A stretch of 64,000 nt of DNA from Galerina marginata (Eukaryota; Basidiomycota; Agaricomycetes; Agaricales; Galerinaceae), in NCBI GenBank assembly GCA_023014335.1, contig JAECYW010000015.1, positions 682,001 to 746,000 of the forward strand, read 5' to 3'. Shown here in pieces: positions 10,759 through 44,669 of the stretch. Below the pieces are notes generated by a model that was not told the DNA's origin, ran no database searches, and saw nothing but the letters and a program-made list of their open reading frames with translations. The first letter of the stretch is position 1, and the number at the start of each line of letters is the position of its first letter. The position numbers were made by a program, and so were the translations under genes.

Positions 10759-11223
10759 CTAAAAAGATTGAGCTTTTTGTTGCTGGAGAACATCAGGACT
10801 TTCACTCCGACAGTACGTTGGAAGTACTGCTCTCTGTTCACTATTTGGATCCGAGATCACAATCCTTTGGTCGCCATCATCGGTATTTTGTACCATACTA
10901 CTAGTCAACATGTCAAACAGTCGTCCCAATAATACTCGGTACGGTGGGTTCTTAATGATGTGTACTTGTAAGTACACTGTCACTCCGCCGAATGAAAATG
11001 GTACATTCTCTGCCAATCCCAGCGTCTTTTCAACCGAGCTGTTTGCCGTTTGCATGTTAATAGTGACGTTTGGGTTCCAAGTTAAACTGATCTCAATAGC
11101 TATGGCCTCAGACATAGAAACAATCTGTGAGCCACTATCTACAATCAATTCTTCTTGTCCTATATGATTTATTTTAGGATATAAGGAGTGCAGGGCATAA
11201 GTATCCCTTGCAACATCAGCCAT
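10759..11223 (-). CDS. Ty3/gypsy aspartic protease region
   Basis: It contains LIVDSGSQIVSM (the DSG active site) and, later, VLLGRLFD (the hydrophobic-G partner motif), the arrangement of retropepsin-like proteases. The apparent start (MAD) lies in the terminus of the inserted element E1; the gypsy reading really begins after it at 11216. In the unsplit element this domain would follow the Gag-linker region at 16651. A frame change separates it from the RT frame starting at 10744. The palindrome arm starts inside this gene at 10868. Confidence 0.8.
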   Translation of the reverse strand: MADVARDTYALHSLYPKINHIGQEELIVDSGSQIVSMSEAIAIEISLTWNPNVTINMQTANSSVEKTLGLAENVPFSFGGVTVYLQVHIIKNPPYRVLLGRLFDMLTSSMVQNTDDGDQRIVISDPNSEQRAVLPTYCRSESPDVLQQQKAQSF

Positions 11224-11984
11224 GGTTGCTACATTTCTATATCAACTCGTGGCAGTTGCCTGATCCACCGATATGGAATTTCCGGGAGTTTGCCTGGCTA
11301 CCATTTTAGGTAACCCCTCAGAAAAAAGCCTGTAGGGTGCCGGAAATGCCGGGGGTAGGTTGGGGATGTCTCTCGGAAGGCAGGTAGGGTGTTTTAGATG
11401 CCGAAAATTCCAGGGAATGGGGCGGGATATGGGTAGAAAAGCGCGGGGGGCAGGGATGTACAAACAAGAAACAAACAATGCACCATTTTGATCCTTGGGC
11501 GGTATTTTTGCTCCTGCACGGGATATGGGTCAATTTGCAGCGCCAAAATTTGTGCAGTAGGTTGGAATATATTATCTATACCCTATTCACCCTTTAGCGC
11601 ATGTCAAACGAGTTGGGAATGGGTGGATTAGAGAATGAGCATCTGGATGACGCTCTATTTTTAGTTCACAAATATTCCGAAAGCGGAAATTAACCCCGGG
11701 ATGATTTGATGCACGTGCTTTTGCTCCCCCGTTTCTCTGCTTTTGCTGTCCTCTTTAAATAAAAGACATGACTGTATTCTCCTCAAAAATGCGAACAAAA
11801 TGATACCAATTTTATCCCTTGAACCTGCCTGGAATCTAGGAAATGACTTCTTTGAAATGTCCAGGTGACATTTACACCTCACATTCTGGTTTCTTTTGCT
11901 GTTCGTGCCTCTGGCTTTAATTAAGTAGCAAAATGTATTTTTACTATGCTACAAGACATTGGTAGTCTACTGAGGGCCTAATAA

Positions 11985-13260
11985 ACAAAAGAGCAGATAG
12001 AGGAAAAGGAGGGATGAGGGATGATGCGTGGTGTACGAACACCGTCCTGTGGTACCCCAACCACCGAGCGGGCTCACGCAGCCCACTATCCAAAGGCAGT
12101 TGGCACCTACACCGGACCCGAAGATGAGTCGGCGTCACAGCAGACGACCATTTGGAAAGGGTAGGTGGGTCTGGGCGAGCGCATGGTGGCGCGGTACGTC
12201 GACGGCGCTGGGTACAGTCCGAAATGAACACGAACACTGCGGTAATGACAGTGTTTGCATTCTCTCGCTCCCTAACACCAGACACCAATGAAGGTGAACG
12301 TGCACTGGAAGGTGGAGGTGCGAGAAGGAAGTCCCCGGTTCGGCTGCCCACTGGTGCCATTGAAGTCGTCGTCTCCCGTGCATCGAGCCCCACAAGTGAC
12401 GTGGAGCACGAGCAGGGAGACGTCAGGAGCTGCAGGCACGGAGATGGGAGGTGTCGCATCGGCATTCTTGGCACAGCGGGGACCGGTGGTTGGATTGTTG
12501 ATGCGGACGCTGGAGGATGTTGAGGTGGACTGACATAGACGATGGTGCTGGGCAACGGTCAATGGGGTGGCAATGACACGGACATCGTCGCAAACAGACG
12601 ACATTTCCGTCTGGCTCCGTAGTTCATGTTGTGTCGCCGTTGTTGAAACGATGAGCCTCGGTGATCATGTTGTTGAGGCAGAGGAGCCGGCGGGGGTCGG
12701 GCTGGAACGTACTCGATAGCGAGACGACGTGCTATGCCGAGTATCGTCCGCGTCTGCTCTGCGCAGTTGGAAGGGGTGGGGAGATGAGTGGACGGGTTGA
12801 CAAAGGACACAAATCGAGTTGTATGACTCGATTTGGCACGCACTAGCCGGGTCTCCCCCTTCCAGGGCCTCCCCTTGCACATCCTAGCCCTTCAATTCCC
12901 GCTGGGATCCCTCCTGAGTTGGCCCACATCCTGGAGGAAGGGAGGGGCCCGCGACGTTAAACCGATGTCGTCAAGGTGTAGACAGTCCCTAAATACAGTT
13001 TGATTTGTTAGAAATACGGTCTTGATATGGATAAATACTAACTTACCTGGTTTAAAGCATCATTTGGGGTTGGGACGGACGAGGGAGAGGGAGGAAGAGG
13101 CGGTCGTGGTGGTTGAGGACGAGATCAACGATGTTTGAACATTGTTGATGTGTTACCCAGATGTTTCCGCGACCGACCCGATTGGCTCGGAAACCCGGAC
13201 CAACCAGTCTCCGATCCGCTCTCGAGGTTTGCAACCCCTCCGAGGACATCCCCAGCAGAT
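11985..13260 (-). other. E1 cargo, half A (GC-rich, intron-containing, unknown)
   Basis: On the minus strand an ATGTTCAAA exon is followed by an intron-like segment at 12989-13046 (GTAAGT ... TTCTAAC ... TTTAG, 58 nt). A GC-rich exon follows with GGGGAGGCCCTGGAAGGGGG and several long open frames on both strands. The same module recurs in half B and in E2. The first exon here is broken early by a stop. I cannot name a product. Confidence 0.45.
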
Positions 13261-13790
13261 TTAAGTGCTTTATTATCGACGGGATGTGTTACCAGGTATT
13301 TATGATCTACTATTCCCAGCTTATAGGTCTTATTAAGGTAAATACAATTTATTACATTCAAAAAACATGCCGTTGGCACTGAATACACTCATTGCTGAGC
13401 TACTCCTTCATGGAATAGACCAACTGCAAGGGTAAGGGGGGTATTAGTAAACTAGTTTAATTGTTATAGATGTGTTTATAAATTTAATACATGAGTTTGG
13501 GGGAATATATAGGCTGATACCTTGAGATGTTCTCAAGGTGTGGATCAATCAAGTAGCTGTACGGTGAATATCGATGGTAATAAAAAAATGTTCTTCGAAT
13601 TTCGTCCAAAGTATCTACTTCAAAGCATGTACATTAGATGCTCTTCAAAATGTATTTTTTATTGCAATACTTGACTCAATCCGCGTGGTATGGCCTGTAA
13701 GATATAAGGTACCTGTACCGAAATCACCTCTCAAATACAATTACCCTTATTATGAGGCTTATATATTTTTATTTACTGATACGTAGTCAG

Positions 13791-14468
13791 TAGTGTTTGG
13801 AAGTCCAGTTACAAGACTGCGAAAAGACCGAGACCGGACCAGGACTGGACTGATAAAGACCGGAAACTTGCAAGACTGATCAAGACCGTAACCGCAGTCC
13901 GGTCTTTGGTCTTTGTCAATCTCAAAATTATAAAGACCTACGAAAAACCGGTTTAAACCGGTCTCAACCGGTCCTTTCGCGTATAAATTTACACAAAAAT
14001 ACGCCTATTAAATACCTTTCGAACAATGTTAATTTCATATTTTTAAGGCAAGAACTCAGAAAGTTACAGCCAGTTTCGTTAATTTTATCGAATTTAGGTA
14101 TAACTCAGCTAATCCTTGACAAAATTTGATGCACTTACACTTATTTTCATGTCAGTACCAAGGTAAATTCATTTATTACTGTATTCAGTTCGATTTACAG
14201 GTCTTTCTATGTAAATTAACCTCACATATCAATGAATATATATGATTGTACATGTCTATCTACCAGTTTGAGAATATATTACCAGGAACTAAAAAGACCG
14301 GTTCAGACCGGTTGAAAGACCACCCAAGACCGTCCAAGACTGCTCTAAACCGGTCCTGGTCAGTCCTGGGCGGTCCTTTGCAGTTAATGAACCACAAAAG
14401 ACCGGTCTCGGTCTCGGTCTTTGGATTTCAGACCCAAAGACCGGACTGGACCGGACTTCCAATCACTA
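13791..14468. mobile_element. hAT-type MITE (678 bp) in E1, copy L
   Basis: The termini are TAGTGTTTGGAAGTCC and, inverted, TAGTGATTGGAAGTCC, which match the TAGNG start of hAT elements. A perfect 8-bp target duplication GTAGTCAG flanks it (13783-13790, 14469-14476). Both subterminal regions are packed with AAGACCG / ACCGGTC motifs. It is non-coding. Confidence 0.9.
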
Positions 14469-14588
14469 GTAGTCAGTAGTACTGTTTAGAATGCTCATTC
14501 AAATAACCTCCTCAATTAATTTTATCTATCAACCTTTTCCAACGTCGTCAGCCTCGATGCGCGCAGTCTCCGGATTGCCCGGTCCGCC

Positions 14589-15740
14589 ATGTTCAACAAC
14601 GACATCAACCAACTCCAACCGTGCGACCTCTGTTATCAATCAACACCACCACCTCTCTCACCTCTCCCTTGCCCCCTCATGCCCCGAATTTTTATCAGGT
14701 ACGTTTCCTTTTGCATAGTATTGTTATCTGACTAATTACTAATAACTTATTTATCTGAGTAGGTTCCTCCACCAATTATGAACCCGCCTACCGACGCCGT
14801 GTTCTGACGCCTTGCGCCCCTCCCCTTGCTGAGGAATGTAGGCCAGCTCAGGAAGGATCCCAGAGGAGTGAGAGGGCTAAAGTGCATCAGGGGAGGCCCT
14901 GGAAGTAGGGGACCCGCCCAGTACATGGTGAATTTGCACAGGGAGCAGAGTACGACGGCCGTGTTGTGCTCTCCTCATCGTAGCCTAGGTTAACGCTCCC
15001 CCAGCACTGCATACGCCATCTCCCAGTGCACACATACGCCCCCGCTTCGACTGCTTGGCCTGCAAACGACGCACCGCAGCCTTGCAAACCGCCTCAAGGA
15101 AACCAACACGAACGCCGTTTGCGTGACGACATTCGCGTTTGGCGACACCCCTCACCTCTGCGAGCCGAGTCGAGGTAACGAACGCAAACTCAATCTTCAT
15201 GAAAGTGTTTGGTTCTTGCATCCTGCCCACGCTTCCTATCTGGTGCATCACAGCTCCCCATTCACCGTTCATGTCACACGGGGGCGACGAGATGTGGGAG
15301 GGAGGCCATTGGCCAAAGTTAGTGCTGTGGTCTTCACTGGCCCCTTTTACACCGCATTTGGGATGCCCTCCGTTGACGTCAAGTGCACATTCCAATCTGC
15401 ACGTCGCTCGTATTCGCCCGCGTCGCCTCCGTTGCCTCACACGTCAACTCAACCGGATTGCCCACCACCAGCTAACCAGCAACATCTGTTGCCAGCACAA
15501 ACACGCTGTCAGTACTGCACCTGGCGTGCCCTCCTTTGACGTTGAGTACACCCTCCAAACTCCACGTTGCTCTCGCGTTAACTCAACCGAATCGCGCTGC
15601 CACCAGCTCACCACCAACACCCAGCACAAACACGTGTCCCTTGTTACCGGCAACGACAACGAGCTGGCTGCGACACACACAACATCACCTTCGTATCATC
15701 TCACCAGATAGGACGAGTCGGTTGGAGGCTGCTAGGCAGT
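14589..15740 (+). other. E1 cargo, half B (GC-rich, intron-containing, unknown)
   Basis: An exon starting ATGTTCAACAACGACATC (14589-14698) is followed by an intron-like segment 14699-14762 (GTACGT ... TAATAAC ... GAGTAG). A GC-rich region follows that is homologous to half A: it shares GGATCCCAG and GGGGAGGCCCTGGAAG in the same order. A spliced frame closes soon after the intron, so this is probably a decayed captured gene. Larger open frames on either strand (such as 15139-15711) have no recognisable features. Confidence 0.4.
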
Positions 15741-16650
15741 AGATAGGCTGCACGATCGCGCTGGATGATTGAGTACCGCAAAGGAGTGCCACAAAGTTAT
15801 GAGGACAGTGCGAGACCTTGTCATCGCACAATGGTCCTCATGCTCATTTCTTCTTTGTTCATCTCTTGTTCATTGGGTCCACCGTAGAGTACTGATGTCT
15901 TGTAGAATAAATATAAAGATTATCTTTCCACTATTTGATTAAGGTTGAAGGCATCAACGGCAAACCAAACGAGGATGCAAGGATTTCGACGGTGAAATCA
16001 GCCGAATGTTAGAGAAGTCATTTCTCGGCTTCCAGCTGGCTTTAAGGAATGAATTGGGTATCAATGGATTCGCATTTTTGAGGAGAATAGAACTATGTAT
16101 TTTATTTTAAGGGGAAAGCAAAAGGAGGGAAACGGGGGAGCAAAAACAAGCCCATCAAACTATTCCGGAGCTAATTCCCACTTTCGGAATATTCGTGAAC
16201 TAAAAATAGAGCGTCATCCAGATGCTCATTCTCTAATCCACCCATTCCCAACTCTTTTGACACGCGCTAAAGGGTGAATAGGGTATAGATAATATATTCC
16301 AACCTACTGCACAAATTTTGGCGCTGCGAATTGACCCATATCCCGTGCAGGAGCAAAAATACCGCCCAAGGATCAAAATGGTGCATTGTTTGTTTCTTGT
16401 TTGTACATCCCTGCCCCCCGCGCTTTTCTACCCATATCCTGCCCCATTCCCTGGAATTCTCGGCATCTAAAACACCCTATCCGCCTTCCGAGAGACATCC
16501 CCAACCTACCCCCGGCATTTCCGGCACCCTACAGGCTTTTTTCTGAGGGGCTACCTAAAATGGTAGCCAGGCAAACTCCCGGATATTCCATATCAGTGGA
16601 TCAGGCAACTGCCAGTAGGTCATATATAAATGTAGTCACCACAGGTGGCG

Positions 16651-17405
16651 ACATACACCTCCTTTGGAACTGCACTGTCATGCATTTGGGCAAACTGAAA
16701 GTACGGGTCCGATGCAACTTGTAAATCGGGCTGAAGGTTCTGATCGTTGAGAATCCCGGCTAGCATGAAGTTAGATAAGGGTAGCTGATCGACCATTAAA
16801 CCTGTCTCTATTTCTCTTGTCCTAGCATTGGCCTCTAATATTTCCTCCATGAAGACTTGTTTTCTGGCTTTAGTGACATTCTTCTTAAATGCTTCCTGGA
16901 TGCCGGGTGCATTGCCCAACAAGTTCTTTAATGGTATGGCTACCGAAAGGTCCATGATTTCATCTAGGACTTTACTAGACTCTGCGTTTTCCTCAACGGG
17001 TGCCTTAGTTTTATATGCTGGACCGTCCTTAGGTGCCTCATTTGTGGCCGGTCGCGGCTCACTAGTACAGGTCACAGTTTTCAACGGTGGGACATCTACA
17101 TAAGGCAACTCCCTCGGCTTTACTACTGCTTTTGGTAAGGTCTTAGCCTTAACCGTACGCTCTTTTTCTTTACTCTTCTGCAATGAAACTGGCGGCCCTC
17201 TTGGTACCGGTTCTTCTTCAACTTCTTCTTCCTGCTCTTCTTCAGTCTCTTCGTGATCTCCTTCATCAGCTGATTCTTGGGGTATTTCTGTTTTCTTGAT
17301 AAACCTGACACTTTTTTTTTTTTTACGGTTCTCCAGGGGCTTCGCTTTAGTCAACTTATCCACCGGTTTAGTAGAGGAAGTTGCTGCCCCTTTCCTCAAA
17401 CTCAT
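16651..17405 (-). CDS. Ty3/gypsy Gag-protease linker region (DUF4100-like), copy L
   Basis: The protein begins Lys-rich, has an acidic coiled stretch (EETEEEQEEEVEEE) near residues 52-70, and then a conserved block (PYVDVPPLK ... APVEE ... DLSVAIPLKNLLGNAPGIQE) that I associate with the DUF4100 region of basidiomycete gypsy polyproteins. The start codon overlaps the stop of the preceding frame (ATGA), so reinitiation or a frameshift could link them. The apparent C-terminus up to 16620 reads into the end of E1. Confidence 0.75.
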
Positions 17406-17671
17406 TGAAAATTTGACTGGTCGGCAGTGTATCCCCCTTCTGACCTGGAGAAATCATTCTGACTCAATACTCTATCCAGAGTCTCCCATCCGTAATTTTG
17501 TGCCATGGTCGCTAACTGTCTAGCTACCTCTGTATCGTTTATAAGCTGATCATAAGTCTGGGTGAAGTAGACGTTGTGCTCGTAATCGGCATCTTGGAAA
17601 AATCCGGCTTGTGACTGGCCAATTTTGGCTAGAGGTTGCCTCTTATTCTTCGCTTCGATGACTTCTCTCAT
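17402..17671 (-). pseudogene. Ty3/gypsy Gag C-terminal segment, copy L
   Basis: An 89-codon frame lies in the same frame as the two Gag segments upstream and is separated from them by in-frame TAG and TGA codons. It contains AKNKRQPLAKIGQSQ and NVYFTQTYDQLINDTEVARQ. In copy B the same codons are split by the 1854-bp hAT-like insertion. Confidence 0.7.
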
Positions 17672-17743
17672 AGTCTTATTACCATCTCACGGTACGAAAT
17701 CTCCTGTTGGTAGCCTTATCTGATTCTGCTCATTACGCATTAT

Positions 17744-18154
17744 CTAGCCTTGCCCGAGATGCTTATTTGCATGTGGACAGTCAAGGATTTGGTGACCTGT
17801 CTCTCTGCAATAGAAACAGATGTTCCCGGCCGCATCCCGTCCTACATAAACATTCCTGTTATAGCCCGTCGGATTGTACGGTGCACTCGCCATCGGCAAA
17901 GGTGCTGGTGCGTTCTTTAGAGTATTAACAGCGGTCAATAGCTGTTCTAATGTTTTAGAAATGGTCTGACTCTGTTGACTCTGAAGCCATACGGTATCTT
18001 GTAACAATGCCATGTCTTCTTCTAATTTTGGATTCTGGCTATTGTGTCCTTTGTCCCGTACTAAGGTTCTGGAGAAAGTAGACCCTTCTTCCACATTATA
18101 TCTGCTGGTTGACCCATGCAAACGTTCAGCTATTACTATCGCGGTCTTGATCAC
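17744..18154 (-). pseudogene. Ty3/gypsy Gag zinc-knuckle segment, copy L
   Basis: It ends with a CCHC nucleic-acid-binding knuckle (CFYCRETGHQILDC, spacing CX2CX4HX4C), preceded by a Gln-rich helical stretch. It continues the frame of the 298-codon segment directly upstream after one TGA codon. A TAG ends it where the sequence otherwise stays Gag-like. The stop codons are shared by all three copies, so the element was already inactive before the duplication. Confidence 0.8.
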
Positions 18155-18169
18155 TTCATTTAAGGTGAA

Positions 18170-19066
18170 TCAATCCTCGTTTCTGTAGTTAACCGTCGCT
18201 GCTGCTGGGGCTGCCACTACTTTATCATGAATGAGATCCAGTCTATTTTCTATTCTGTTGACGAAGTCTGGGTGTAAGCACAAATATAACTTAATTACTA
18301 ACTCCCTATTCGAGAGTAGCTTAGATTCTGCTTGCAACTTTGCCACTTCTGCACAGAATGATCGCTTGAGACTGAGTAGCTCATCTAGATTATTCTCTCT
18401 TATCCTGTTTCTGCTCCCTTTAGCCTTTAAGATCTTTTCCAATCTTTCTAACGATCCCGTCTCCAAAGCTGCTGCTTCTGGATAACTCCTAACAATTTCC
18501 TTTTTATAGTCTGCCCATTTCCCAAGCTCATAGGACGGGAACGCTCTCCATTCTGACTCTGTTACAGCCGACGCATACTTTCCAAGAGTTTCAACTTTTG
18601 TCTTCTCACTAGTGATATTGTGAGTAGCAAACAAGTCCTCCACTCTATTTATGAATCGTGATAATTTGGACGGTTGCTCATCATCAAACTTCGTTGCGTC
18701 CCTCAATCCGGGAATTGGCATAGGCATGATTGTCTGAGGTTGTACAGGTAAATTGGTAGAAATATTGGTATTGTTCGGTACATCTGGGGTAACTGGATTG
18801 GTAGTAGCCACGGTTGTTGCTAAGACTGGTACGGTACTAAATGATGCCCTTGGTGATTCCTCAGGTCCTTCGCTAATCTGTTGTCTCTGACTTTCAACAC
18901 TGGCCGATATGCGTGCCCTGTAATGTGCTTCTGTGGGGTTATTGTTGCTAATAAATTTGGCCTTAGGCTTCAATCTACTAATGCTCAGAAGTTTATCTTG
19001 GTAAGGAAGGGTTGCTCCACTGGAATTATTCGTCTCCCTAGATGTTGACAGTTGATTAAACTCCAC
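18170..19066 (-). CDS. Ty3/gypsy Gag capsid segment, copy L
   Basis: This is a 298-codon frame with a Ser/Thr/Pro-rich N-terminus and a capsid-like helical region: LSRFINRVEDLFATHNITSE, then EWRAFPSYELGKWADYKKEI, then LERLEKILKAKGSR. It matches the arrangement of basidiomycete gypsy Gag. It ends at a TGA but the same frame continues as Gag. It is the first gene of the element, with protease, RT and integrase downstream on the same strand. Confidence 0.8.
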   Translation of the reverse strand: MEFNQLSTSRETNNSSGATLPYQDKLLSISRLKPKAKFISNNNPTEAHYRARISASVESQRQQISEGPEESPRASFSTVPVLATTVATTNPVTPDVPNNTNISTNLPVQPQTIMPMPIPGLRDATKFDDEQPSKLSRFINRVEDLFATHNITSEKTKVETLGKYASAVTESEWRAFPSYELGKWADYKKEIVRSYPEAAALETGSLERLEKILKAKGSRNRIRENNLDELLSLKRSFCAEVAKLQAESKLLSNRELVIKLYLCLHPDFVNRIENRLDLIHDKVVAAPAAATVNYRNED

Positions 19067-21380
19067 TGGTGCTGGCTCCGTCCGCTTCCTTTTACCTCTT
19101 CCTCTGTCTGCTATGTTTAATAAAAGGACGGTTACCCGTGTCTTTTAAAATAGTAGCTTTCTGTAACCGTCAAATTACGGTTGTGATTTTTCAGCTTTCC
19201 GATATAGACAGAAAGATCAAAGGTTTGATCTGGAATTTAACCCTCCCTTGCGGTGGGCTCCAGATAAGATGGTTGCTGCGGGGTAGTTCTGAATACTAGC
19301 TAGACCACAATAGATAAACACTTCAATAATGAAATGAAAATCCCTACTATATGTCTCCAATGGTCTCAGTCAATATTCAAATCTAACACTCTTATTTGTC
19401 TAGCAGTAATCACCCAATCAAATATTTGACTAGTCGTCTCTGGGAGGGACAGTAATTTTACAATGCCCTGATCAAAGCCGATGATTCCCGTCAATCTCAT
19501 GAACTGAAGGGACACGTACACAAATATAAGTGCGACGACCCGGAGAAAGGTTGTAAATTGGATTGAGAAATAGAATGATATTTTTGGTGTAGAGTCCTGT
19601 ACTCTGTGTTGAAGTGAAAATGTCGGCTAACGACGTATACTCAATAATTGGTGCATTACCGAAACGCAAGTGCTCTTAGGTTACCAAAACCTATCAACTA
19701 AAATAAACTCTTCAATGTCCCGGATAGTCTACAATTACTGAAATTGTCCCTATCACAGTCCAGGTCTTTGACAACACTGTACTACCGAAGTACGATTTAA
19801 CATGCTGCCAAATTGGAGGGCCACCGGAGCCTTATTCTAGTCAACAATATGATGGTGAACAAGATCTTTGTTTCAAGTCTTAGAACCATTATCTAAAGTT
19901 TGTTTGTTTGTAATTCCATATATATTTTAAGACCATCCTTTGCAATTATGCACCGTTATCTAAAGTACTCTCACTCTGATCACAAAAGTGAAATTCTTTC
20001 AAGTCAAATACTATTCAAAATTCTTTGAAGACAAGTCAACAAATCGAAGTCACTTAGGCAGCTTGTATAAACTGTCCAAATATAATTTTGTGGGTGGTAA
20101 ATTGCTTGTTATTGTGCTACAAATGTCTACTAACTTTATACTACGCAATACTAATTTTACATGTGTTATTTTGGAGCACCGTCCTTTTACAAACCTCCAG
20201 TCCCATGTGAGTACTTGTATCTTACTAAGTCGTGAACTGGGTTTAACTGTGCAAAAGAGGAGATATTGGCACGTGTCCCCGTTAGGTCTGAGTCCCGTAA
20301 CTCCTTTATGCAATAATACTGTCCTTTGATAGAACCGTACCATGTGGAACAGTCCATATGCTCACTGGTTAACTTGTTTCTTCAATATCTCCAGGTGCCT
20401 ACAACCGAAAGGGGAAATATCTCCATGGATTTAATAATTCCCGTCCCCGTTTGTAGAACTCTCCATTAATTCCTTATACTGTATATCAGTGTACGGTATG
20501 TTCAGCATGGTATTCCTGTCTTATGTTCTAAGTCTCCCGCATGTTAAACTTGTTCACGCGCTACATTCCTTGCTAAATATAGATATGCCCCATCAGTGAA
20601 GTCGGAGGTACCGTACTAGCTCAAATTGGACTTATCTCTGTTCTTCGGTTCTTTCAAGGGTTCTGCAAATCTCTTCAGTAAGCATGGGAATATCCGCAAC
20701 TCATGTTCTGACTTCTCGGGCCCGCTTCCCGTCTTATTCGGATTGTGCCAAGACGGCATGCGATAATAAGGCAATCACTGCATTGTTTTGGTTCACATTG
20801 AGCACTAAAGACCCACGCTTATCTGTAGTGGGTGCTTGGGTTGGCTCGTGTTCGTAGCACCGTCCATTAATGTATTCACTGTACATTTTGTGGTACCATA
20901 GTTATGAATACTATTATTTTTATCACAGTGTTCCGTCACGTACAATAGTTTTCTTTAGTCTATGCTCTGCATGTACTGTCTGGGACGTTCAATATACTTC
21001 ATTTCTATCTAAGTTTGAGAGAGAAGAACTTGTAAAATCAAAAAATTCAGGGCTGGACCAAGGACCGTCCCTTCAGCATCGCTGCGCTAGTGAAGGCTTG
21101 GGGTGGCTCTACCAAGTACTAATCGAGTTCTGATCCTCAGTAAGCGATTCTGACTTCGCTTCTTTGCAGACATGCTTATCTCTTCCGGTGACAGTGTGCA
21201 AGCAAAAGAATTGCACATCGGTTTTTTTACTATATGGAGTTTATTTGATGTTACGAACATGGCTGCTTATTCTACTTTCTATGGACGCATTATGTACTTG
21301 TCTACCTACAATTCGAGTACCTATTTATCTTGATATGACGCGTTTTGCAATCTCGAGATCAGTTTTGATGGTGCACGTGG
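19067..21380. other. Upstream region of the gypsy element (leader/LTR not delimited)
   Basis: No gene is recognised. A possible primer-binding site TGGAGCCCACCGCAAG (minus strand, 19247-19262) lies 180 nt before the gag ATG. LTR ends could not be fixed because the 3' LTR side near 6.6 kb is disrupted by another element. The pentamer ACGGT/ACCGT recurs often, as in the pol region. Confidence 0.35.
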
Positions 21381-22463: not shown

Positions 22464-22471
22464 GCTCTAAC

Positions 22472-29842: not shown

Positions 29843-29857
29843 TTTCAAAAATCTATG

Positions 29858-33700: not shown

Positions 33701-36409
33701 GTTAGAGCTGTTAACAGGGCCTCAAAATACTCAAAAGTTGGAAGTAAGAGTGAAAAAGAATTGTCATTTACTTGGGTCTACCCTGAGCTAATACAAGGAA
33801 CTGGTTACATAATCATATATACATGACTAACAACTCCTAGCGTGTATGAGAGAGTTAGTATTCAAAAAAGAAAGAAAATATGACTGGTATATTGAATATA
33901 TTCCTTACAGAGCCCCCTCACTCTCTCATTGGGTGCGAGCATAGCAGATTTGTTGATATTCGGGAACTGTCAGTTGGGAGATAGCAATACAATCCCAGTC
34001 TGTGGGTGTGACAAATTGATTGCAAAGTAGTCAGATTTCAGTTATGTTTTCCTCTGTAGGTATATACAGTGGCGATCAAAAGTATTGCACAGCCACCACG
34101 TGCACCATCAAAACTGATCTCGAGATTGCAAAACGCGTCATATCAAGATAAATAGGTACTCGAATTGTAGGTAGACAAGTACATAATGCGTCCATAGAAA
34201 GTAGAATAAGCAGCCATGTTCGTAACATCAAATAAACTCCATATAGTAAAAAAACCGATGTGCAATTCTTTTGCTTGCACACTGTCACCGGAAGAGATAA
34301 GCATGTCTGCAAAGAAGCGAAGTCAGAATCGCTTACTGAGGATCAGAACTCGATTAGTACTTGGTAGAGCCACCCCAAGCCTTCACTAGCGCAGCGATGC
34401 TGAAGGGACGGTCCTTGGTCCAGCCCTGAATTTTTTGATTTTACGAGTTCTTCTCTCTCAAACTTAGATAGAAATGAAGTATATTGAACGTCCCAGACAG
34501 TACATGCAGAGCATAGACTAAAGAAAACTATTGTACGTGACGGAACACTGTGATAAAAATAATAGTATTCATAACTATGGTACCACAAAATGTACAGTGA
34601 ATACATTAATGGACGGTGCTACGAACACGAGCCAACCCAAGCACCCACTACAGATAAGCGTGGGTCTTTAGTGCTCAATGTGAACCAAAACAATGCAGTG
34701 ATTGCCTTATTATCGCATGCCGTCTTGGCACAATCCGAATAAGACGGGAAGCGGGCCCGAGAAGTCAGAACATGAGTTGCGGATATTCCCATGCTTACTG
34801 AAGAGATTTGCAGAACCCTTGAAAGAACCGAAGAACAGAGATAAGTCCAATTTGAGCTAGTACGGTACCTCCGACTTCACTGATGGGGCATATCTATATT
34901 TAGCAAGGAATGTAGCGCGTGAACAAGTTTAACATGCGGGAGACTTAGAACATAAGACAGGAATACCATGCTGAACATACCGTACACTGATATACAGTAT
35001 AAGGAATTAATGGAGAGTTCTACAAACGGGGACGGGAATTATTAAATCCATGGAGATATTTCCCCTTTCGGTTGTAGGCACCTGGAGATATTGAAGAAAC
35101 AAGTTAACCAGTGAGCATATGGACTGTTCCACATGGTACGGTTCTATCAAAGGACAGTATTATTGCATAAAGGAGTTACGGGACTCAGACCTAACGGGGA
35201 CACGTGCCAATATCTCCTCTTTTGCACAGTTAAACCCAGTTCACGACTTAGTAAGATACAAGTACTCACATGGGACTGGAGGTTTGTAAAAGGACGGTGC
35301 TCCAAAATAACACATGTAAAATTAGTATTGCGTAGTATAAAGTTAGTAGACATTTGTAGCACAATAACAAGCAATTTACCACCCACAAAATTATATTTGG
35401 ACAGTTTATACAAGCTGCCTAAGTGACTTCGATTTGTTGACTTGTCTTCAAAGAATTTTGAATAGTATTTGACTTGAAAGAATTTCACTTTTGTGATCAG
35501 AGTGAGAGTACTTTAGATAACGGTGCATAATTGCAAAGGATGGTCTTAAAATATATATGGAATTACAAACAAACAAACTTTAGATAATGGTTCTAAGACT
35601 TGAAACAAAGATCTTGTTCACCATCATATTGTTGACTAGAATAAGGCTCCGGTGGCCCTCCAATTTGGCAGCATGTTAAATCGTACTTCGGTAGTACAGT
35701 GTTGTCAAAGACCTGGACTGTGATAGGGACAATTTCAGTAATTGTAGACTATCCGGGACATTGAAGAGTTTATTTTAGTTGATAGGTTTTGGTAACCTAA
35801 GAGCACTTGCGTTTCGGTAATGCACCAATTATTGAGTATACGTCGTTAGCCGACATTTTCACTTCAACACAGAGTACAGGACTCTACACCAAAAATATCA
35901 TTCTATTTCTCAATCCAATTTACAACCTTTCTCCGGGTCGTCGCACTTATATTTGTGTACGTGTCCCTTCAGTTCATGAGATTGACGGGAATCATCGGCT
36001 TTGATCAGGGCATTGTAAAATTACTGTCCCTCCCAGAGACGACTAGTCAAATATTTGATTGGGTGATTACTGCTAGACAAATAAGAGTGTTAGATTTGAA
36101 TATTGACTGAGACCATTGGAGACATATAGTAGGGATTTTCATTTCATTATTGAAGTGTTTATCTATTGTGGTCTAGCTAGTATTCAGAACTACCCCGCAG
36201 CAACCATCTTATCTGGAGCCCACCGCAAGGGAGGGTTAAATTCCAGATCAAACCTTTGATCTTTCTGTCTATATCGGAAAGCTGAAAAATCACAACCGTA
36301 ATTTGACGGTTACAGAAAGCTACTATTTTAAAAGACACGGGTAACCGTCCTTTTATTAAACATAGCAGACAGAGGAAGAGGTAAAAGGAAGCGGACGGAG
36401 CCAGCACCA
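33701..36409. other. Gypsy upstream region (unit A)
   Basis: Mirror of 19067-21775. It contains the Tc1/mariner-like end (34067-34095) and the possible primer-binding site (36214-36229). No gene is recognised. Confidence 0.4.
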
Positions 36410-37306
36410 GTGGAGTTTAATCAACTGTCAACATCTAGGGAGACGAATAATTCCAGTGGAGCAACCCTTCCTTACCAAGATAAACTTCTGAGCATTAGTA
36501 GATTGAAGCCTAAGGCCAAATTTATTAGCAACAATAACCCCACAGAAGCACATTACAGGGCACGCATATCGGCCAGTGTTGAAAGTCAGAGACAACAGAT
36601 TAGCGAAGGACCTGAGGAATCACCAAGGGCATCATTTAGTACCGTACCAGTCTTAGCAACAACCGTGGCTACTACCAATCCAGTTACCCCAGATGTACCG
36701 AACAATACCAATATTTCTACCAATTTACCTGTACAACCTCAGACAATCATGCCTATGCCAATTCCCGGATTGAGGGACGCAACGAAGTTTGATGATGAGC
36801 AACCGTCCAAATTATCACGATTCATAAATAGAGTGGAGGACTTGTTTGCTACTCACAATATCACTAGTGAGAAGACAAAAGTTGAAACTCTTGGAAAGTA
36901 TGCGTCGGCTGTAACAGAGTCAGAATGGAGAGCGTTCCCGTCCTATGAGCTTGGGAAATGGGCAGACTATAAAAAGGAAATTGTTAGGAGTTATCCAGAA
37001 GCAGCAGCTTTGGAGACGGGATCGTTAGAAAGATTGGAAAAGATCTTAAAGGCTAAAGGGAGCAGAAACAGGATAAGAGAGAATAATCTAGATGAGCTAC
37101 TCAGTCTCAAGCGATCATTCTGTGCAGAAGTGGCAAAGTTGCAAGCAGAATCTAAGCTACTCTCGAATAGGGAGTTAGTAATTAAGTTATATTTGTGCTT
37201 ACACCCAGACTTCGTCAACAGAATAGAAAATAGACTGGATCTCATTCATGATAAAGTAGTGGCAGCCCCAGCAGCAGCGACGGTTAACTACAGAAACGAG
37301 GATTGA
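36410..37306 (+). CDS. Ty3/gypsy Gag capsid segment (unit A)
   Basis: Same 298-codon protein as copy L, read on the plus strand. It ends at TGA (37304-37306), after which the frame stays Gag-like. Confidence 0.8.
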   Translation: MEFNQLSTSRETNNSSGATLPYQDKLLSISRLKPKAKFISNNNPTEAHYRARISASVESQRQQISEGPEESPRASFSTVPVLATTVATTNPVTPDVPNNTNISTNLPVQPQTIMPMPIPGLRDATKFDDEQPSKLSRFINRVEDLFATHNITSEKTKVETLGKYASAVTESEWRAFPSYELGKWADYKKEIVRSYPEAAALETGSLERLEKILKAKGSRNRIRENNLDELLSLKRSFCAEVAKLQAESKLLSNRELVIKLYLCLHPDFVNRIENRLDLIHDKVVAAPAAATVNYRNED

Positions 37307-37321
37307 TTCACCTTAAATGAA

Positions 37322-37732
37322 GTGATCAAGACCGCGATAGTAATAGCTGAACGTTTGCATGGGTCAACCAGCAGATATAATGTGGAAGAAGGGTCTACTT
37401 TCTCCAGAACCTTAGTACGGGACAAAGGACACAATAGCCAGAATCCAAAATTAGAAGAAGACATGGCATTGTTACAAGATACCGTATGGCTTCAGAGTCA
37501 ACAGAGTCAGACCATTTCTAAAACATTAGAACAGCTATTGACCGCTGTTAATACTCTAAAGAACGCACCAGCACCTTTGCCGATGGCGAGTGCACCGTAC
37601 AATCCGACGGGCTATAACAGGAATGTTTATGTAGGACGGGATGCGGCCGGGAACATCTGTTTCTATTGCAGAGAGACAGGTCACCAAATCCTTGACTGTC
37701 CACATGCAAATAAGCATCTCGGGCAAGGCTAG
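37322..37732 (+). pseudogene. Ty3/gypsy Gag zinc-knuckle segment (unit A)
   Basis: It carries the CCHC knuckle CFYCRETGHQILDC. It is in frame with the capsid segment and cut off by TGA before it and TAG after it, as in L and B. Confidence 0.8.
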
Positions 37733-37804
37733 ATAATGCGTAATGAGCAGAATCAGATAAGGCTACCAACAGGAGATTTCGTACCGTGAGATGGTAATAA
37801 GACT

Positions 37805-38074
37805 ATGAGAGAAGTCATCGAAGCGAAGAATAAGAGGCAACCTCTAGCCAAAATTGGCCAGTCACAAGCCGGATTTTTCCAAGATGCCGATTACGAGCAC
37901 AACGTCTACTTCACCCAGACTTATGATCAGCTTATAAACGATACAGAGGTAGCTAGACAGTTAGCGACCATGGCACAAAATTACGGATGGGAGACTCTGG
38001 ATAGAGTATTGAGTCAGAATGATTTCTCCAGGTCAGAAGGGGGATACACTGCCGACCAGTCAAATTTTCAATGA
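37805..38074 (+). pseudogene. Ty3/gypsy Gag C-terminal segment (unit A)
   Basis: Uninterrupted version of the segment that carries the hAT-like insertion in unit B. The site GCGACCAT at 37964-37971 is the empty target. Confidence 0.75.
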
Positions 38075-38825
38075 GTTTGAGGAAAGGGGCAGCAACTTCC
38101 TCTACTAAACCGGTGGATAAGTTGACTAAAGCGAAGCCCCTGGAGAACCGTAAAAAAAAAAAAAGTGTCAGGTTTATCAAGAAAACAGAAATACCCCAAG
38201 AATCAGCTGATGAAGGAGATCACGAAGAGACTGAAGAAGAGCAGGAAGAAGAAGTTGAAGAAGAACCGGTACCAAGAGGGCCGCCAGTTTCATTGCAGAA
38301 GAGTAAAGAAAAAGAGCGTACGGTTAAGGCTAAGACCTTACCAAAAGCAGTAGTAAAGCCGAGGGAGTTGCCTTATGTAGATGTCCCACCGTTGAAAACT
38401 GTGACCTGTACTAGTGAGCCGCGACCGGCCACAAATGAGGCACCTAAGGACGGTCCAGCATATAAAACTAAGGCACCCGTTGAGGAAAACGCAGAGTCTA
38501 GTAAAGTCCTAGATGAAATCATGGACCTTTCGGTAGCCATACCATTAAAGAACTTGTTGGGCAATGCACCCGGCATCCAGGAAGCATTTAAGAAGAATGT
38601 CACTAAAGCCAGAAAACAAGTCTTCATGGAGGAAATATTAGAGGCCAATGCTAGGACAAGAGAAATAGAGACAGGTTTAATGGTCGATCAGCTACCCTTA
38701 TCTAACTTCATGCTAGCCGGGATTCTCAACGATCAGAACCTTCAGCCCGATTTACAAGTTGCATCGGACCCGTACTTTCAGTTTGCCCAAATGCATGACA
38801 GTGCAGTTCCAAAGGAGGTGTATGT
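38071..38825 (+). CDS. Gag-protease linker, DUF4100-like (unit A)
   Basis: Same as copy L. It starts at an ATGA overlap with the preceding stop. The gypsy sequence ends at the ATGT target duplication (38822-38825), after which the frame runs 31 nt into E1. Confidence 0.75.
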
Positions 38826-41007
38826 CGCCACCTGTGGTGACTACATTTATATATGACCTACTGGCAGTTGCCTGATCCACTGATATGGAATATCCGGGAG
38901 TTTGCCTGGCTACCATTTTAGGTAGCCCCTCAGAAAAAAGCCTGTAGGGTGCCGGAAATGCCGGGGGTAGGTTGGGGATGTCTCTCGGAAGGCGGATAGG
39001 GTGTTTTAGATGCCGAGAATTCCAGGGAATGGGGCAGGATATGGGTAGAAAAGCGCGGGGGGCAGGGATGTACAAACAAGAAACAAACAATGCACCATTT
39101 TGATCCTTGGGCGGTATTTTTGCTCCTGCACGGGATATGGGTCAATTCGCAGCGCCAAAATTTGTGCAGTAGGTTGGAATATATTATCTATACCCTATTC
39201 ACCCTTTAGCGCGTGTCAAAAGAGTTGGGAATGGGTGGATTAGAGAATGAGCATCTGGATGATGCTCTATTTTTAGTTCACGAATATTCCGAAAGTGGGA
39301 ATTAGCTCCGGAATAGTTTGATGGGCTTGTTTTTGCTCCCCCGTTTCCCTCCTTTTGCTTTCCCCTTAAAATAAAATACATAGTTCTATTCTCCTCAAAA
39401 ATGCGAATCCATTGATACCCAATTCATTCCTTAAAGCCAGCTGGAAGCCGAGAAATGACTTCTCTAACATTCGGCTGATTTCACCGTCGAAATCCTTGCA
39501 TCCTCGTTTGGTTTGCCGTTGATGCCTTCAACCTTAATCAAATAGTGGAAAGATAATCTTTATATTTATTCTACAAGACATCAGTACTCTACGGTGGACC
39601 CAATGAACAAGAGATGAACAAAGAAGAAATGAGCATGAGGACCATTGTGCGATGACAAGGTCTCGCACTGTCCTCATAACTTTGTGGCACTCCTTTGCGG
39701 TACTCAATCATCCAGCGCGATCGTGCAGCCTATCTACTGCCTAGCAGCCTCCAACCGACTCGTCCTATCTGGTGAGATGATACGAAGGTGATGTTGTGTG
39801 TGTCGCAGCCAGCTCGTTGTCGTTGCCGGTAACAAGGGACACGTGTTTGTGCTGGGTGTTGGTGGTGAGCTGGTGGCAGCGCGATTCGGTTGAGTTAACG
39901 CGAGAGCAACGTGGAGTTTGGAGGGTGTACTCAACGTCAAAGGAGGGCACGCCAGGTGCAGTACTGACAGCGTGTTTGTGCTGGCAACAGATGTTGCTGG
40001 TTAGCTGGTGGTGGGCAATCCGGTTGAGTTGACGTGTGAGGCAACGGAGGCGACGCGGGCGAATACGAGCGACGTGCAGATTGGAATGTGCACTTGACGT
40101 CAACGGAGGGCATCCCAAATGCGGTGTAAAAGGGGCCAGTGAAGACCACAGCACTAACTTTGGCCAATGGCCTCCCTCCCACATCTCGTCGCCCCCGTGT
40201 GACATGAACGGTGAATGGGGAGCTGTGATGCACCAGATAGGAAGCGTGGGCAGGATGCAAGAACCAAACACTTTCATGAAGATTGAGTTTGCGTTCGTTA
40301 CCTCGACTCGGCTCGCAGAGGTGAGGGGTGTCGCCAAACGCGAATGTCGTCACGCAAACGGCGTTCGTGTTGGTTTCCTTGAGGCGGTTTGCAAGGCTGC
40401 GGTGCGTCGTTTGCAGGCCAAGCAGTCGAAGCGGGGGCGTATGTGTGCACTGGGAGATGGCGTATGCAGTGCTGGGGGAGCGTTAACCTAGGCTACGATG
40501 AGGAGAGCACAACACGGCCGTCGTACTCTGCTCCCTGTGCAAATTCACCATGTACTGGGCGGGTCCCCTACTTCCAGGGCCTCCCCTGATGCACTTTAGC
40601 CCTCTCACTCCTCTGGGATCCTTCCTGAGCTGGCCTACATTCCTCAGCAAGGGGAGGGGCGCAAGGCGTCAGAACACGGCGTCGGTAGGCGGGTTCATAA
40701 TTGGTGGAGGAACCTACTCAGATAAATAAGTTATTAGTAATTAGTCAGATAACAATACTATGCAAAAGGAAACGTACCTGATAAAAATTCGGGGCATGAG
40801 GGGGCAAGGGAGAGGTGAGAGAGGTGGTGGTGTTGATTGATAACAGAGGTCGCACGGTTGGAGTTGGTTGATGTCGTTGTTGAACATGGCGGACCGGGCA
40901 ATCCGGAGACTGCGCGCATCGAGGCTGACGACGTTGGAAAAGGTTGATAGATAAAATTAATTGAGGAGGTTATTTGAATGAGCATTCTAAACAGTACTAC
41001 TGACTAC

Positions 41008-41685
41008 TAGTGATTGGAAGTCCGGTCCAGTCCGGTCTTTGGGTCTGAAATCCAAAGACCGAGACCGAGACCGGTCTTTTGTGGTTCATTAACTGCAAAG
41101 GACCGCCCAGGACTGACCAGGACCGGTTTAGAGCAGTCTTGGACGGTCTTGGGTGGTCTTTCAACCGGTCTGAACCGGTCTTTTTAGTTCCTGGTAATAT
41201 ATTCTCAAACTGGTAGATAGACATGTACAATCATATATATTCATTGATATGTGAGGTTAATTTACATAGAAAGACCTGTAAATCGAACTGAATACAGTAA
41301 TAAATGAATTTACCTTGGTACTGACATGAAAATAAGTGTAAGTGCATCAAATTTTGTCAAGGATTAGCTGAGTTATACCTAAATTCGATAAAATTAACGA
41401 AACTGGCTGTAACTTTCTGAGTTCTTGCCTTAAAAATATGAAATTAACATTGTTCGAAAGGTATTTAATAGGCGTATTTTTGTGTAAATTTATACGCGAA
41501 AGGACCGGTTGAGACCGGTTTAAACCGGTTTTTCGTAGGTCTTTATAATTTTGAGATTGACAAAGACCAAAGACCGGACTGCGGTTACGGTCTTGATCAG
41601 TCTTGCAAGTTTCCGGTCTTTATCAGTCCAGTCCTGGTCCGGTCTCGGTCTTTTCGCAGTCTTGTAACTGGACTTCCAAACACTA
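41008..41685. mobile_element. hAT-type MITE (678 bp) in E1, unit A
   Basis: Mirror of 13791-14468 with the target duplication CTGACTAC on both sides. Confidence 0.9.
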
Positions 41686-42215
41686 CTGACTACGTATCAG
41701 TAAATAAAAATATATAAGCCTCATAATAAGGGTAATTGTATTTGAGAGGTGATTTCGGTACAGGTACCTTATATCTTACAGGCCATACCACGCGGATTGA
41801 GTCAAGTATTGCAATAAAAAATACATTTTGAAGAGCATCTAATGTACATGCTTTGAAGTAGATACTTTGGACGAAATTCGAAGAACATTTTTTTATTACC
41901 ATCGATATTCACCGTACAGCTACTTGATTGATCCACACCTTGAGAACATCTCAAGGTATCAGCCTATATATTCCCCCAAACTCATGTATTAAATTTATAA
42001 ACACATCTATAACAATTAAACTAGTTTACTAATACCCCCCTTACCCTTGCAGTTGGTCTATTCCATGAAGGAGTAGCTCAGCAATGAGTGTATTCAGTGC
42101 CAACGGCATGTTTTTTGAATGTAATAAATTGTATTTACCTTAATAAGACCTATAAGCTGGGAATAGTAGATCATAAATACCTGGTAACACATCCCGTCGA
42201 TAATAAAGCACTTAA

Positions 42216-43532
42216 ATCTGCTGGGGATGTCCTCGGAGGGGTTGCAAACCTCGAGAGCGGATCGGAGACTGGTTGGTCCGGGTTTCCGAGCCAATCGGGT
42301 CGGTCGCGGAAACATCTGGGTAACACATCAACAATGTTCAAACATCGTTGATCTCGTCCTCAACCACCACGACCGCCTCTTCCTCCCTCTCCCTCGTCCG
42401 TCCCAACCCCAAATGATGCTTTAAACCAGGTAAGTTAGTATTTATCCATATCAAGACCGTATTTCTAACAAATCAAACTGTATTTAGGGACTGTCTACAC
42501 CTTGACGACATCGGTTTAACGTCGCGGGCCCCTCCCTTCCTCCAGGATGTGGGCCAACTCAGGAGGGATCCCAGCGGGAATTGAAGGGCTAGGATGTGCA
42601 AGGGGAGGCCCTGGAAGGGGGAGACCCGGCTAGTGCGTGCCAAATCGAGTCATACAACTCGATTTGTGTCCTTTGTCAACCCGTCCACTCATCTCCCCAC
42701 CCCTTCCAACTGCGCAGAGCAGACGCGGACGATACTCGGCATAGCACGTCGTCTCGCTATCGAGTACGTTCCAGCCCGACCCCCGCCGGCTCCTCTGCCT
42801 CAACAACATGATCACCGAGGCTCATCGTTTCAACAACGGCGACACAACATGAACTACGGAGCCAGACGGAAATGTCGTCTGTTTGCGACGATGTCCGTGT
42901 CATTGCCACCCCATTGACCGTTGCCCAGCACCATCGTCTATGTCAGTCCACCTCAACATCCTCCAGCGTCCGCATCAACAATCCAACCACCGGTCCCCGC
43001 TGTGCCAAGAATGCCGATGCGACACCTCCCATCTCCGTGCCTGCAGCTCCTGACGTCTCCCTGCTCGTGCTCCACGTCACTTGTGGGGCTCGATGCACGG
43101 GAGACGACGACTTCAATGGCACCAGTGGGCAGCCGAACCGGGGACTTCCTTCTCGCACCTCCACCTTCCAGTGCACGTTCACCTTCATTGGTGTCTGGTG
43201 TTAGGGAGCGAGAGAATGCAAACACTGTCATTACCGCAGTGTTCGTGTTCATTTCGGACTGTACCCAGCGCCGTCGACGTACCGCGCCACCATGCGCTCG
43301 CCCAGACCCACCTACCCTTTCCAAATGGTCGTCTGCTGTGACGCCGACTCATCTTCGGGTCCGGTGTAGGTGCCAACTGCCTTTGGATAGTGGGCTGCGT
43401 GAGCCCGCTCGGTGGTTGGGGTACCACAGGACGGTGTTCGTACACCACGCATCATCCCTCATCCCTCCTTTTCCTCTATCTGCTCTTTTGTTTATTAGGC
43501 CCTCAGTAGACTACCAATGTCTTGTAGCATAG
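42216..43532 (+). other. E1 cargo, half A (unit A)
   Basis: Plus-strand version of the cargo. An intron-like segment lies at 42430-42487 with GTAAGT, TTTCTAACAA and TTTAG. The open frame 42921-43532 (203 codons, Pro/Ser-rich) is the longest in this block but has no recognisable domain. Confidence 0.4.
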
Positions 43533-44252
43533 TAAAAATACATTTTGCTACTTAATTAAAGCCAGAGGCACGAACAGCAAAAGAAACCAGAATGTGAGGT
43601 GTAAATGTCACCTGGACATTTCAAAGAAGTCATTTCCTAGATTCCAGGCAGGTTCAAGGGATAAAATTGGTATCATTTTGTTCGCATTTTTGAGGAGAAT
43701 ACAGTCATGTCTTTTATTTAAAGAGGACAGCAAAAGCAGAGAAACGGGGGAGCAAAAACACGTGCATCAAATCATCCCGGGGTTAATTTCCGCTTTCGGA
43801 ATATTTGTGAACTAAAAATAGAGCGTCATCCAGATGCTCATTCTCTAATCCACCCATTCCCAACTCGTTTGACATGCGCTAAAGGGTGAATAGGGTATAG
43901 ATAATATATTCCAACCTACTGCACAAATTTTGGCGCTGCAAATTGACCCATATCCCGTGCAGGAGCAAAAATACCGCCCAAGGATCAAAATGGTGCATTG
44001 TTTGTTTCTTGTTTGTACATCCCCGCCCCCCGCGCTTTTCTACCCATATCCTGCCCCATTCCCTGGAATTTTCGGCATCTAAAACACCCTACCTGCCTTC
44101 CGAGAGACATCCCCAACCTACCCCCGGCATTTCCGGCACCCTACAGGCTTTTTTCTGAGGGGTTACCTAAAATGGTAGCCAGGCAAACTCCCGGAAATTC
44201 CATATCGGTGGATCAGGCAACTGCCACGAGTTGATATAGAAATGTAGCAACC

Positions 44253-44669
44253 ATGGCTGATGTTGCAAGGGATACTTATGCCCTGCACTCCTTATATCCT
44301 AAAATAAATCATATAGGACAAGAAGAATTGATTGTAGATAGTGGCTCACAGATTGTTTCTATGTCTGAGGCCATAGCTATTGAGATCAGTTTAACTTGGA
44401 ACCCAAACGTCACTATTAACATGCAAACGGCAAACAGCTCGGTTGAAAAGACGCTGGGATTGGCAGAGAATGTACCATTTTCATTCGGCGGAGTGACAGT
44501 GTACTTACAAGTACACATCATTAAGAACCCACCGTACCAAGTATTATTGGGACGACTGTTCGACGTGTTGACTAGTAGTATGGTACAAAATACCGATGAT
44601 GGCGACCACATTCTGGAGGACGGAAATGTTGATGCTGCTGCCAGCCATAGCAGCTATAATTATATATGA
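44253..44669 (+). pseudogene. Ty3/gypsy protease fragment (unit A)
   Basis: It has LIVDSGSQIVSM and VLLGRLFD as in L, with two substitutions near the end (YQVLLGRLFDV). After NTDDGD the frame runs into the 35-bp patch and E2, so the C-terminal 25 residues are foreign. RT, RNase H and integrase are absent from this copy. Confidence 0.8.
44607..44641. other. 35-bp patch at the A/B junction
   Basis: Reverse complement of 25642-25676 (Harbinger partner gene) with one mismatch. It overlaps the arm end by CA and abuts the E2 terminus at 44642. It marks the breakpoint between tandem units. Confidence 0.75.

What the first reader, a model, noticed from the sequence alone, without database searches (positions are those of the whole stretch)
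10868..44608. Giant, nearly identical inverted duplication (two about 14.75-kb arms, 4.2-kb asymmetric centre)
Both arms carry the same gypsy gag, E1, MITEs and minisatellites in mirror order, differing only at scattered single bases and small indels. The edges fall inside genes (protease outside, Harbinger partner inside), so this is a chromosomal fold-back event and not an element with long TIRs. Such palindromes are unstable and rarely kept or assembled.
Basis: seen in the sequence. Interest (0 to 1): 0.75.

Follow-up and report, generated by a model that had tools for sequence, protein, structure and literature searches.

The report
Transposon-made tandem array with inverted copy
A stretch of a mushroom-type fungal chromosome made largely of old transposons has been copied several times, once backwards and a little over twice in a row, and the copies look as if they have overwritten one another; it is a clear but fairly ordinary example of how repeat-rich DNA reshuffles itself.

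Summary
The inverted repeat is real: 10868-25626 matches 44608-29858 at 99.86%. It is only part of the structure. Read past the window's end, contig C7 carries a head-to-tail array of a 17.9-kb unit: B 27028-44608, C 44609-64383, and D 64384-69947, which is broken off (about 2.3 units).

A is not a simple fold-back twin of B. A keeps 15 bp of an uninterrupted ORF (25627-25641) where the three units carry a 3.1-kb chimera of two transposon pieces. A's gypsy runs on past 10868, where B and C turn into the tandem junction. Copy C has a private 1854-bp transposon with an 8-bp target duplication.

A and the units differ by 4 fixed SNPs in the inner 14.5 kb but by 5 in 235 bp at the edges. This fits an older duplication later homogenised by gene conversion.

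Best reading: break repair, possibly through a circular or rolling intermediate, amplified part of a transposon island beside a related copy. The way it formed is inferred, and no reads could be checked. New member of a known kind; interest moderate to low.

The parts
10868..25626 (-). Copy A: single inverted copy of the arm (gypsy 5' part with a nested long-TIR transposon, other repeats, start of ORF X)
   Evidence: 99.86% identical to 44608-29858. At 10868 the gypsy simply continues.
6859..11241 (-). Rest of the gypsy element of copy A: protease 10759-11241, RT 9089-10792 (assigned by position and eye; no Pfam hit), RNaseH-integrase 7725-9206
   Evidence: PF13975, PF17917, PF17921. B and C stop at the equivalent of 10868.
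11217..16641 (.). Long-TIR transposon (terminal repeats of about 0.8 kb, 85% alike) nested in the gypsy between DUF4100 and protease; present in A, B and C
   Evidence: 11223-12006 against 16641-15847, inverted; 9 similar inverted pairs elsewhere among 40 scored candidates of 96.
16620..19144 (-). Gypsy 5' ORFs: DUF4100-like 16620-17453 and gag-like 18170-19144 (repeated at 38023-38856, 36332-37306, 57798-58631, 54245-55219)
   Evidence: PF13352, E 1e-5, 26.2 bits, under its 27.9-bit cut-off. Gag is by position only; Pfam found nothing.
25512..26105 (+). ORF X, uninterrupted in A; the 15 bp at 25627-25641 are replaced in the units by the Z-Y chimera
   Evidence: the relative at C40 aligns without a gap at the site.
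26329..27027 (-). 5'-truncated Harbinger-type DDE transposase ORF, cut at junction J1
   Evidence: relatives at C42 and C25 continue upstream; 70% to a PF13359 protein listed; conserved first exon found only at C42 and C25.
27027..27028 (.). Junction J1: A-side DDE ORF joined to base 300 of transposon Z
   Evidence: no N in the 134 kb around it.
27028..44608 (+). Unit B (first direct unit, lacking the first 332 bp of the unit); ends at tandem junction J2
44609..44641 (+). 33-bp piece of X (reverse complement of 25642-25674) at the tandem junction; same at 64384-64416
   Evidence: 35-bp match, 97%, of which the outer 2 bp are shared with the gypsy side.
44642..47467 (+). Transposon Z, left part with its long TIR (same in B from 27028, truncated)
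   Evidence: first base matches the start of full-length copies such as C5:1954730-1959920.
47454..47768 (+). Piece of the TIR of another long-TIR transposon (Y), overlapping Z by 14 bp; B equivalent 29541-29855
   Evidence: 89% to both TIRs of the C12 element.
44609..64000 (+). Unit C (runs on to 64383, past the window's end); junction J2 at its start 44608/44609 and again at 64383/64384
55885..57738 (.). 1854-bp transposon private to unit C, flanked by 8-bp direct repeats (55877-55884 and 57739-57746)
   Evidence: flanks; 8 further full-length relatives, 76-94%.

Best explanation
This is a local amplification inside a transposon island of an Agaricomycete chromosome. SHOWN: a 17.9-kb unit made largely of transposon remains stands head to tail about 2.3 times (27028-69947 in window coordinates), and a single related copy A faces it in inverted orientation. 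The unit's closing junction joins the gypsy protease (equivalent to 10868) to ORF X (equivalent to 25674-25676) with 2 bp of microhomology. The array opens 300 bp inside transposon Z and closes 5.6 kb into the third unit, so it is a permuted slice of a repeating unit and not an in-place tandem duplication with its natural flanks. INFERRED: A and the units separated before Z and Y entered ORF X in the unit lineage. A broken piece of that lineage was then closed on itself and copied (circle, rolling circle or repeated template switching) and joined by end-joining or microhomology to a broken DDE gene 1.4 kb from copy A. Since then the copies have exchanged sequence, so the 14.5-kb interiors are almost identical while the edges, where pairing partners run out, keep the older differences.
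For: Array and periods. Tandem junction present twice with identical letters; among 40 scored candidates of 100, no other place carries the whole stretch. A holds the uninterrupted ORF X. Z-Y is a chimera of two partial transposons overlapping by 14 bp. Edges against interior: 4 fixed A/unit SNPs in about 14,550 bp against 5 in 235 bp, one of the 5 being in the 35-bp X match (Poisson 9e-9). Of 9 arm events (8 SNPs and a 1-bp homopolymer indel; the 9-bp indel left out) 5 lie within 130 bp of an end, reached in 0 of 200,000 random placements. Restricted to CpG-type changes: 4 of 7 at the edges, where 9 of 492 CpGs lie, P 4e-6. At the gypsy edge A carries the derived base at two sites and the units at one, against 5 distinct relatives, so both lineages have old private changes. 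Units differ privately: B 4, C 2, D 6 SNPs, and C has its own transposon.
Against: No reads were available, so copy number and J1/J3 rest on the assembly. The edge windows were chosen after seeing the data. The edge signal rests on few sites, 4 of the 5 known to be CpG-type and so hypermutable. Two of the four interior SNPs (43758, 44024) also lie within 0.9 kb of the gypsy edge. No long match above 94% to the Z-Y chimera was found outside the array (40 of 215 candidates scored). The base pairs at J1 cannot be checked, because the rest of that DDE gene was not found in the assembly; this also fails a simple insertion model. Nothing shows a circle directly. Hits on contigs C17 and C27 suggest that the assembly holds one region twice, so some redundancy in it may be artificial.
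Confidence: 0.5

Rival explanations
1. In-place tandem duplication by unequal exchange or microhomology, later inverted or broken at both ends, with no circular intermediate.
For: Head-to-tail units with one junction are the ordinary product of tandem duplication. The right end lies inside a MITE whose relative (92%) starts the right flank, so a repeat-based break there is easy.
Against: Neither natural flank (X-DDE on the left, gypsy pol on the right) is found at the array's ends, so two further events are needed.
Confidence: 0.27
2. Simple fold-back or breakage-fusion inverted duplication, with later additions.
For: One inverted junction (27027/27028) beside near-identical arms.
Against: A lacks Z-Y, which the three units have; edge divergence is uneven; the direct tandem units are unexplained. 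It would need fusion of two different homologues.
Confidence: 0.1
3. Assembly or haplotype chimera: copy A and the units come from two nuclei of a dikaryon, or the tandem copies are over-assembled.
For: A without and the units with Z-Y look like two alleles. C17 and C27 share hits at a nearly constant offset with equal scores, so the assembly may not be free of redundancy.
Against: No N in 134 kb. Each unit has private SNPs, and C a private transposon with its target duplication. The flank 25627-27027 has one full-length match, itself, in the assembly.
Confidence: 0.13
4. One very recent duplication without gene conversion; the clustered edge differences are mutations made by error-prone repair at the breakpoints or CpG hot spots.
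For: 13 of 20 SNPs are CpG-type changes although CpGs are 16% of G+C sites. Three of the edge SNPs lie in 27 bp.
Against: Two of the three gypsy-edge changes are derived in A, which has no breakpoint there. The bias towards edges remains among CpG sites alone. It does not explain why A lacks Z-Y.
Confidence: 0.1

Closest known systems
Segmental duplications attributed to circular DNA intermediates (human cSDPs; PMC7450558, abstract and one Results section read)
   Same: Permuted order of the copied segment, a closing junction with little homology (0-2 bp or a 1-nt insertion there, 2 bp here).
   Different: Here more than two head-to-tail copies, beside a related copy and inverted; the acceptor gene was not found again on the other side; the right end lies in a shared MITE.
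Gene-converting palindromes and inverted repeats, e.g. human Y palindromes (PMC6790999, abstract read)
   Same: Inverted arms nearly identical, with sequence exchange as the explanation; copy-number change near a palindrome.
   Different: Made largely of transposon remains; conversion inferred from edges only, no population data.
Breakage-replication/fusion and inverted amplification models (PMC12807874, abstract read; PMC4689423 ODIRA and PMC10622511 fold-back, listings only)
   Same: Amplification that includes inverted copies.
   Different: Hallmarks such as adjacent parallel breakpoints or inverted triplications were not tested here.
Fungal centromeres with homogenised inverted repeats (Candida tropicalis, PMC4741521, abstract and section titles seen)
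   Same: Near-identical inverted repeats around a short centre.
   Different: Arms of 14.75 kb against 2-5 kb; no kinetochore data; this structure found at one place only.

Membership tests
Segmental duplication | More than 1 kb and 90% identity, not a single mobile element's copies | tested here: met
   14.76 kb at 99.86% with several nested and truncated elements.
Transposon with giant terminal inverted repeats | Arm ends coincide with element ends flanked by a target duplication | tested here: not met
   Ends lie inside the gypsy protease ORF and ORF X; A's gypsy continues past 10868.
Simple fold-back inverted duplication | Second arm is a copy of the same molecule, so the content matches up to the turn | tested here: not met
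   Z-Y chimera in the units, absent from A; 15 bp of X kept in A.
Circle-derived duplication | Permuted order with a circle-closing junction | tested here: met
   J2 inside the array, array ends elsewhere in the unit; also compatible with a slice of any tandem array.
Circle-derived duplication | Acceptor locus continuous on both sides of the insert | tested here: not met
   The DDE first exon is not within 54 kb right of the array (best match 19 aa at E 4.8) nor elsewhere apart from C42 and C25; a deletion would have to be assumed, so it is not filed as circle-derived.
Gene-converting inverted repeat | Interior more alike than edges | tested here: met
   windows chosen after inspection.
Gene-converting inverted repeat | Alleles shared between arms within a population | not testable with these tools
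   One assembly only.
Inverted-repeat centromere | CENP-A binding; one such locus per chromosome | not testable with these tools
   No ChIP data. The exact structure was found at one place in the genome.

The most novel reading that the evidence does not exclude
An extrachromosomal circle made from a transposon island of a fungus was rolled into a multimer and put back, inverted, within 1.4 kb of the copy it is related to, and has since been kept nearly identical to that copy by gene conversion across the inverted pair: a natural case in which circle formation, reinsertion and concerted evolution can be read from one locus.
Probability: 0.22. Interest if true: 0.5.

Novelty: new member of a known kind. 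Interest (0 to 1): 0.33.

Why it matters
It is a base-resolved example of how a transposon island in a mushroom-type fungus can grow by segmental copying and not by transposition alone. It also suggests how gene conversion can make an old duplication look brand new: dated by the interior, the duplication seems almost contemporary, while its edges look far older. Junctions J1-J3 are short PCR targets for measuring copy-number change or circles. Nothing in the locus requires a new mechanism.

Tried and rejected
Chance or single-transposon origin of the inverted repeat: rejected (arm ends inside ORFs).

Genome-wide palindromes as a feature of this assembly: mirror coordinates on C5 (1462292-1474530) suggested another large palindrome. 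On reading part of the DNA it is two 99.9%-alike Z transposons facing each other. Similarly C5:1916340 and 1954730 are two near-identical Z copies, with identity starting at the element end. Dropped.

A second 'two direct, one inverted' set on the same contig (C7:1637183, 1659349, 1694143): a 2-kb flank of the first (L052) is not shared by the others. The other side was not tested, so this is inconclusive.

Array as an insertion into the DDE gene with the gene's other half on the right: no significant first-exon match in 154 kb around the locus (the positive control from C25 was found) nor in the genome beyond C42 and C25. One search used a query without the conserved exon.

Right of the array: a 3-kb test stretch (C7:766001-769000) is itself a dispersed repeat with 96% copies on C11 and at C7:1688939; it told nothing about the array's origin.

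Gypsy LTRs flanking copy A: none seen as long direct repeats. Rfam: no match in the window.

In one search the rows at B positions 29854-29857 (junction with Y), 32255-32264 (next to J3) and the seven bases at 37964 (a leftover part of the 8-bp target duplication from my cut) were left out of the SNP counts; the 9-bp indel was left out of the event count.

Literature: five searches. I make no claim that such a locus is unpublished.
Full report
WHAT IS THERE. The window is C7:682001-746000 of a 69.3-Mb, 43-contig assembly without names. Named relatives of a DDE transposase copy on C42 of the same genome come mostly from Agaricomycetes such as Lyophyllum, Agrocybe and Mycena (best 120 of 174 hits listed), so the source is taken to be an Agaricomycete. 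Self-comparison confirms the reported inverted repeat to the base: 10868-25626 against 44608-29858, 99.864% over 14,760 columns. The same comparison shows direct copies as well. I read on to C7:796000 (L009-L013) and back to C7:662001 (L014, L015), 134 kb without an N. Taking the tandem junction as the border, the structure is: copy A inverted (10868-25626); unit B (27028-44608); unit C (44609-64383, longer by a private insert); unit D (64384-69947, broken off). The period is about 17.91 kb, and B, C and D together make about 2.3 units without the insert. The whole structure spans 10868-69947, 59 kb.

ANATOMY. Copy A sits in a gypsy element on the minus strand: gag-like ORF 18170-19144, DUF4100-like 16620-17453, a nested long-TIR transposon at about 11217-16641, protease 10759-11241, and RT/RNaseH/integrase down to 6859 (gag and RT by position, without a Pfam hit). 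To its right lie ORF X (25512-26105) and a DDE transposase ORF (26329-27027, minus), probably together a Harbinger-type element. That label is an inference: Pfam gives no hit on the two fragments, but among the 120 proteins the DDE ORF is up to 70% identical, over 187 residues, to one with PF13359.

JUNCTIONS. J2 (44608/44609 and again 64383/64384) joins gypsy protease to a 33-bp piece of X (reverse complement of 25642-25674) with 2 shared bases, followed at once by the first base of transposon Z. Z (44642-47467) gives way to a TIR piece of a second transposon, Y (47454-47768), with 14 shared bases. Y then meets X at the equivalent of 25626. In A the 15 bp 25627-25641 stand in place of Z-Y, and a relative of X on C40 aligns across them without a gap. 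A is therefore the state before insertion. At 10868 nothing is broken in A; its gypsy continues. J1 (27027/27028) joins the DDE ORF to base 300 of Z. Relatives of the ORF on C42 and C25 run on upstream, so the ORF is cut there. Its conserved first exon was found only in those two relatives and not within the 154 kb examined. J3 (69947/69948) lies inside a MITE, and the right flank starts with another member of the same MITE family, 92% alike and out of register.

DIFFERENCES BETWEEN COPIES. Fixed A/unit differences: 8 SNPs, a 9-bp and a 1-bp indel in the arm, plus one SNP in the 35-bp X match. Private SNPs: B 33749 and 44052 plus two in Z; C 34660 and 42912; D four in the 2.4 kb of arm it has, plus two in Z. 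At one of D's sites (31889) the single relative seen agrees with D. The 1854-bp insert of C has 8-bp flanking repeats and 8 further full-length relatives at 76-94%, so it is a mobile element, most simply one that arrived after C existed. The edges of the arm are far more diverged than its interior (5 SNPs in 235 bp against 4 in 14,550), although two of the four interior SNPs lie within 0.9 kb of the gypsy edge. At the gypsy edge A carries the derived base at two sites and the units at one, judged by 5 distinct gypsy relatives (whose counts of 7 include two overlapping loci). Of 20 SNPs, 13 are CpG-type, as expected if these repeats carry methylated CpGs (general knowledge, not tested). Among CpG-type A/unit changes alone, 4 of 7 lie within 130 bp of an end, where 9 of 492 CpGs lie. 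The windows were chosen after seeing the sites.

HOW IT PROBABLY WORKS. The array's ends are not the natural flanks of the unit, and its internal junction is constant, so what was joined in was a slice of a repeating molecule or array. A closing junction with 2 bp of microhomology and a permuted order resemble what has been described for human duplications attributed to circular intermediates (PMC7450558, abstract and one section read). In that model the acceptor should continue on both sides; here the DDE gene's other half was not found, so a deletion or a second event must be assumed, and I do not file it as circle-derived. In-place tandem duplication with later breakage remains close behind. 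A plain fold-back does not fit, because A lacks Z-Y. After formation, exchange between A and the units, and among the units, made the interiors alike. This last step is the best supported of the inferred ones.

ARTEFACT. No reads could be examined. Private SNPs, the private transposon and the absence of N speak for real copies. Contigs C17 and C27 share hits at an offset of about 691.3-691.4 kb with equal scores, so the assembly may contain some redundancy, and a dikaryon mix-up between A and the units cannot be excluded.

VERDICT. It is a new member of a known kind, of moderate to low interest.

Noticed in passing
G000 C17 (about 0.75-1.19 Mb) and C27 (about 0.06-0.50 Mb): Hits recur on both contigs at an offset of about 691.3-691.4 kb with equal scores: perhaps one chromosome region assembled twice, or a very recent large duplication.
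   Followed up: no
G000 C7:1637183-1639253, 1659349-1661418, 1694143-1696212: Three nearly equal hits of the insert family, two direct and one inverted, within 60 kb of the same contig; a 2-kb flank of the first is not shared.
   Followed up: partly
G000 C5:1462292-1474530 and C5:1916340 / 1954730: Pairs of about 99.9%-alike 5.3-kb Z transposons, one pair face to face with a 1.5-kb gap: this long-TIR family seems to have moved recently (parts of the elements compared).
   Followed up: partly
G000 C1, C5, C7, C8, C9, C13, C18, C23, C34, C41: Z-family hits fall mostly in one cluster per contig, two on C5 (40 of 100 candidates scored), which could mark centromere-like islands.
   Followed up: no
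window 27028-47768: 13 of 20 SNPs between copies are CpG-type changes, a possible sign of CpG methylation in these repeats.
   Followed up: partly
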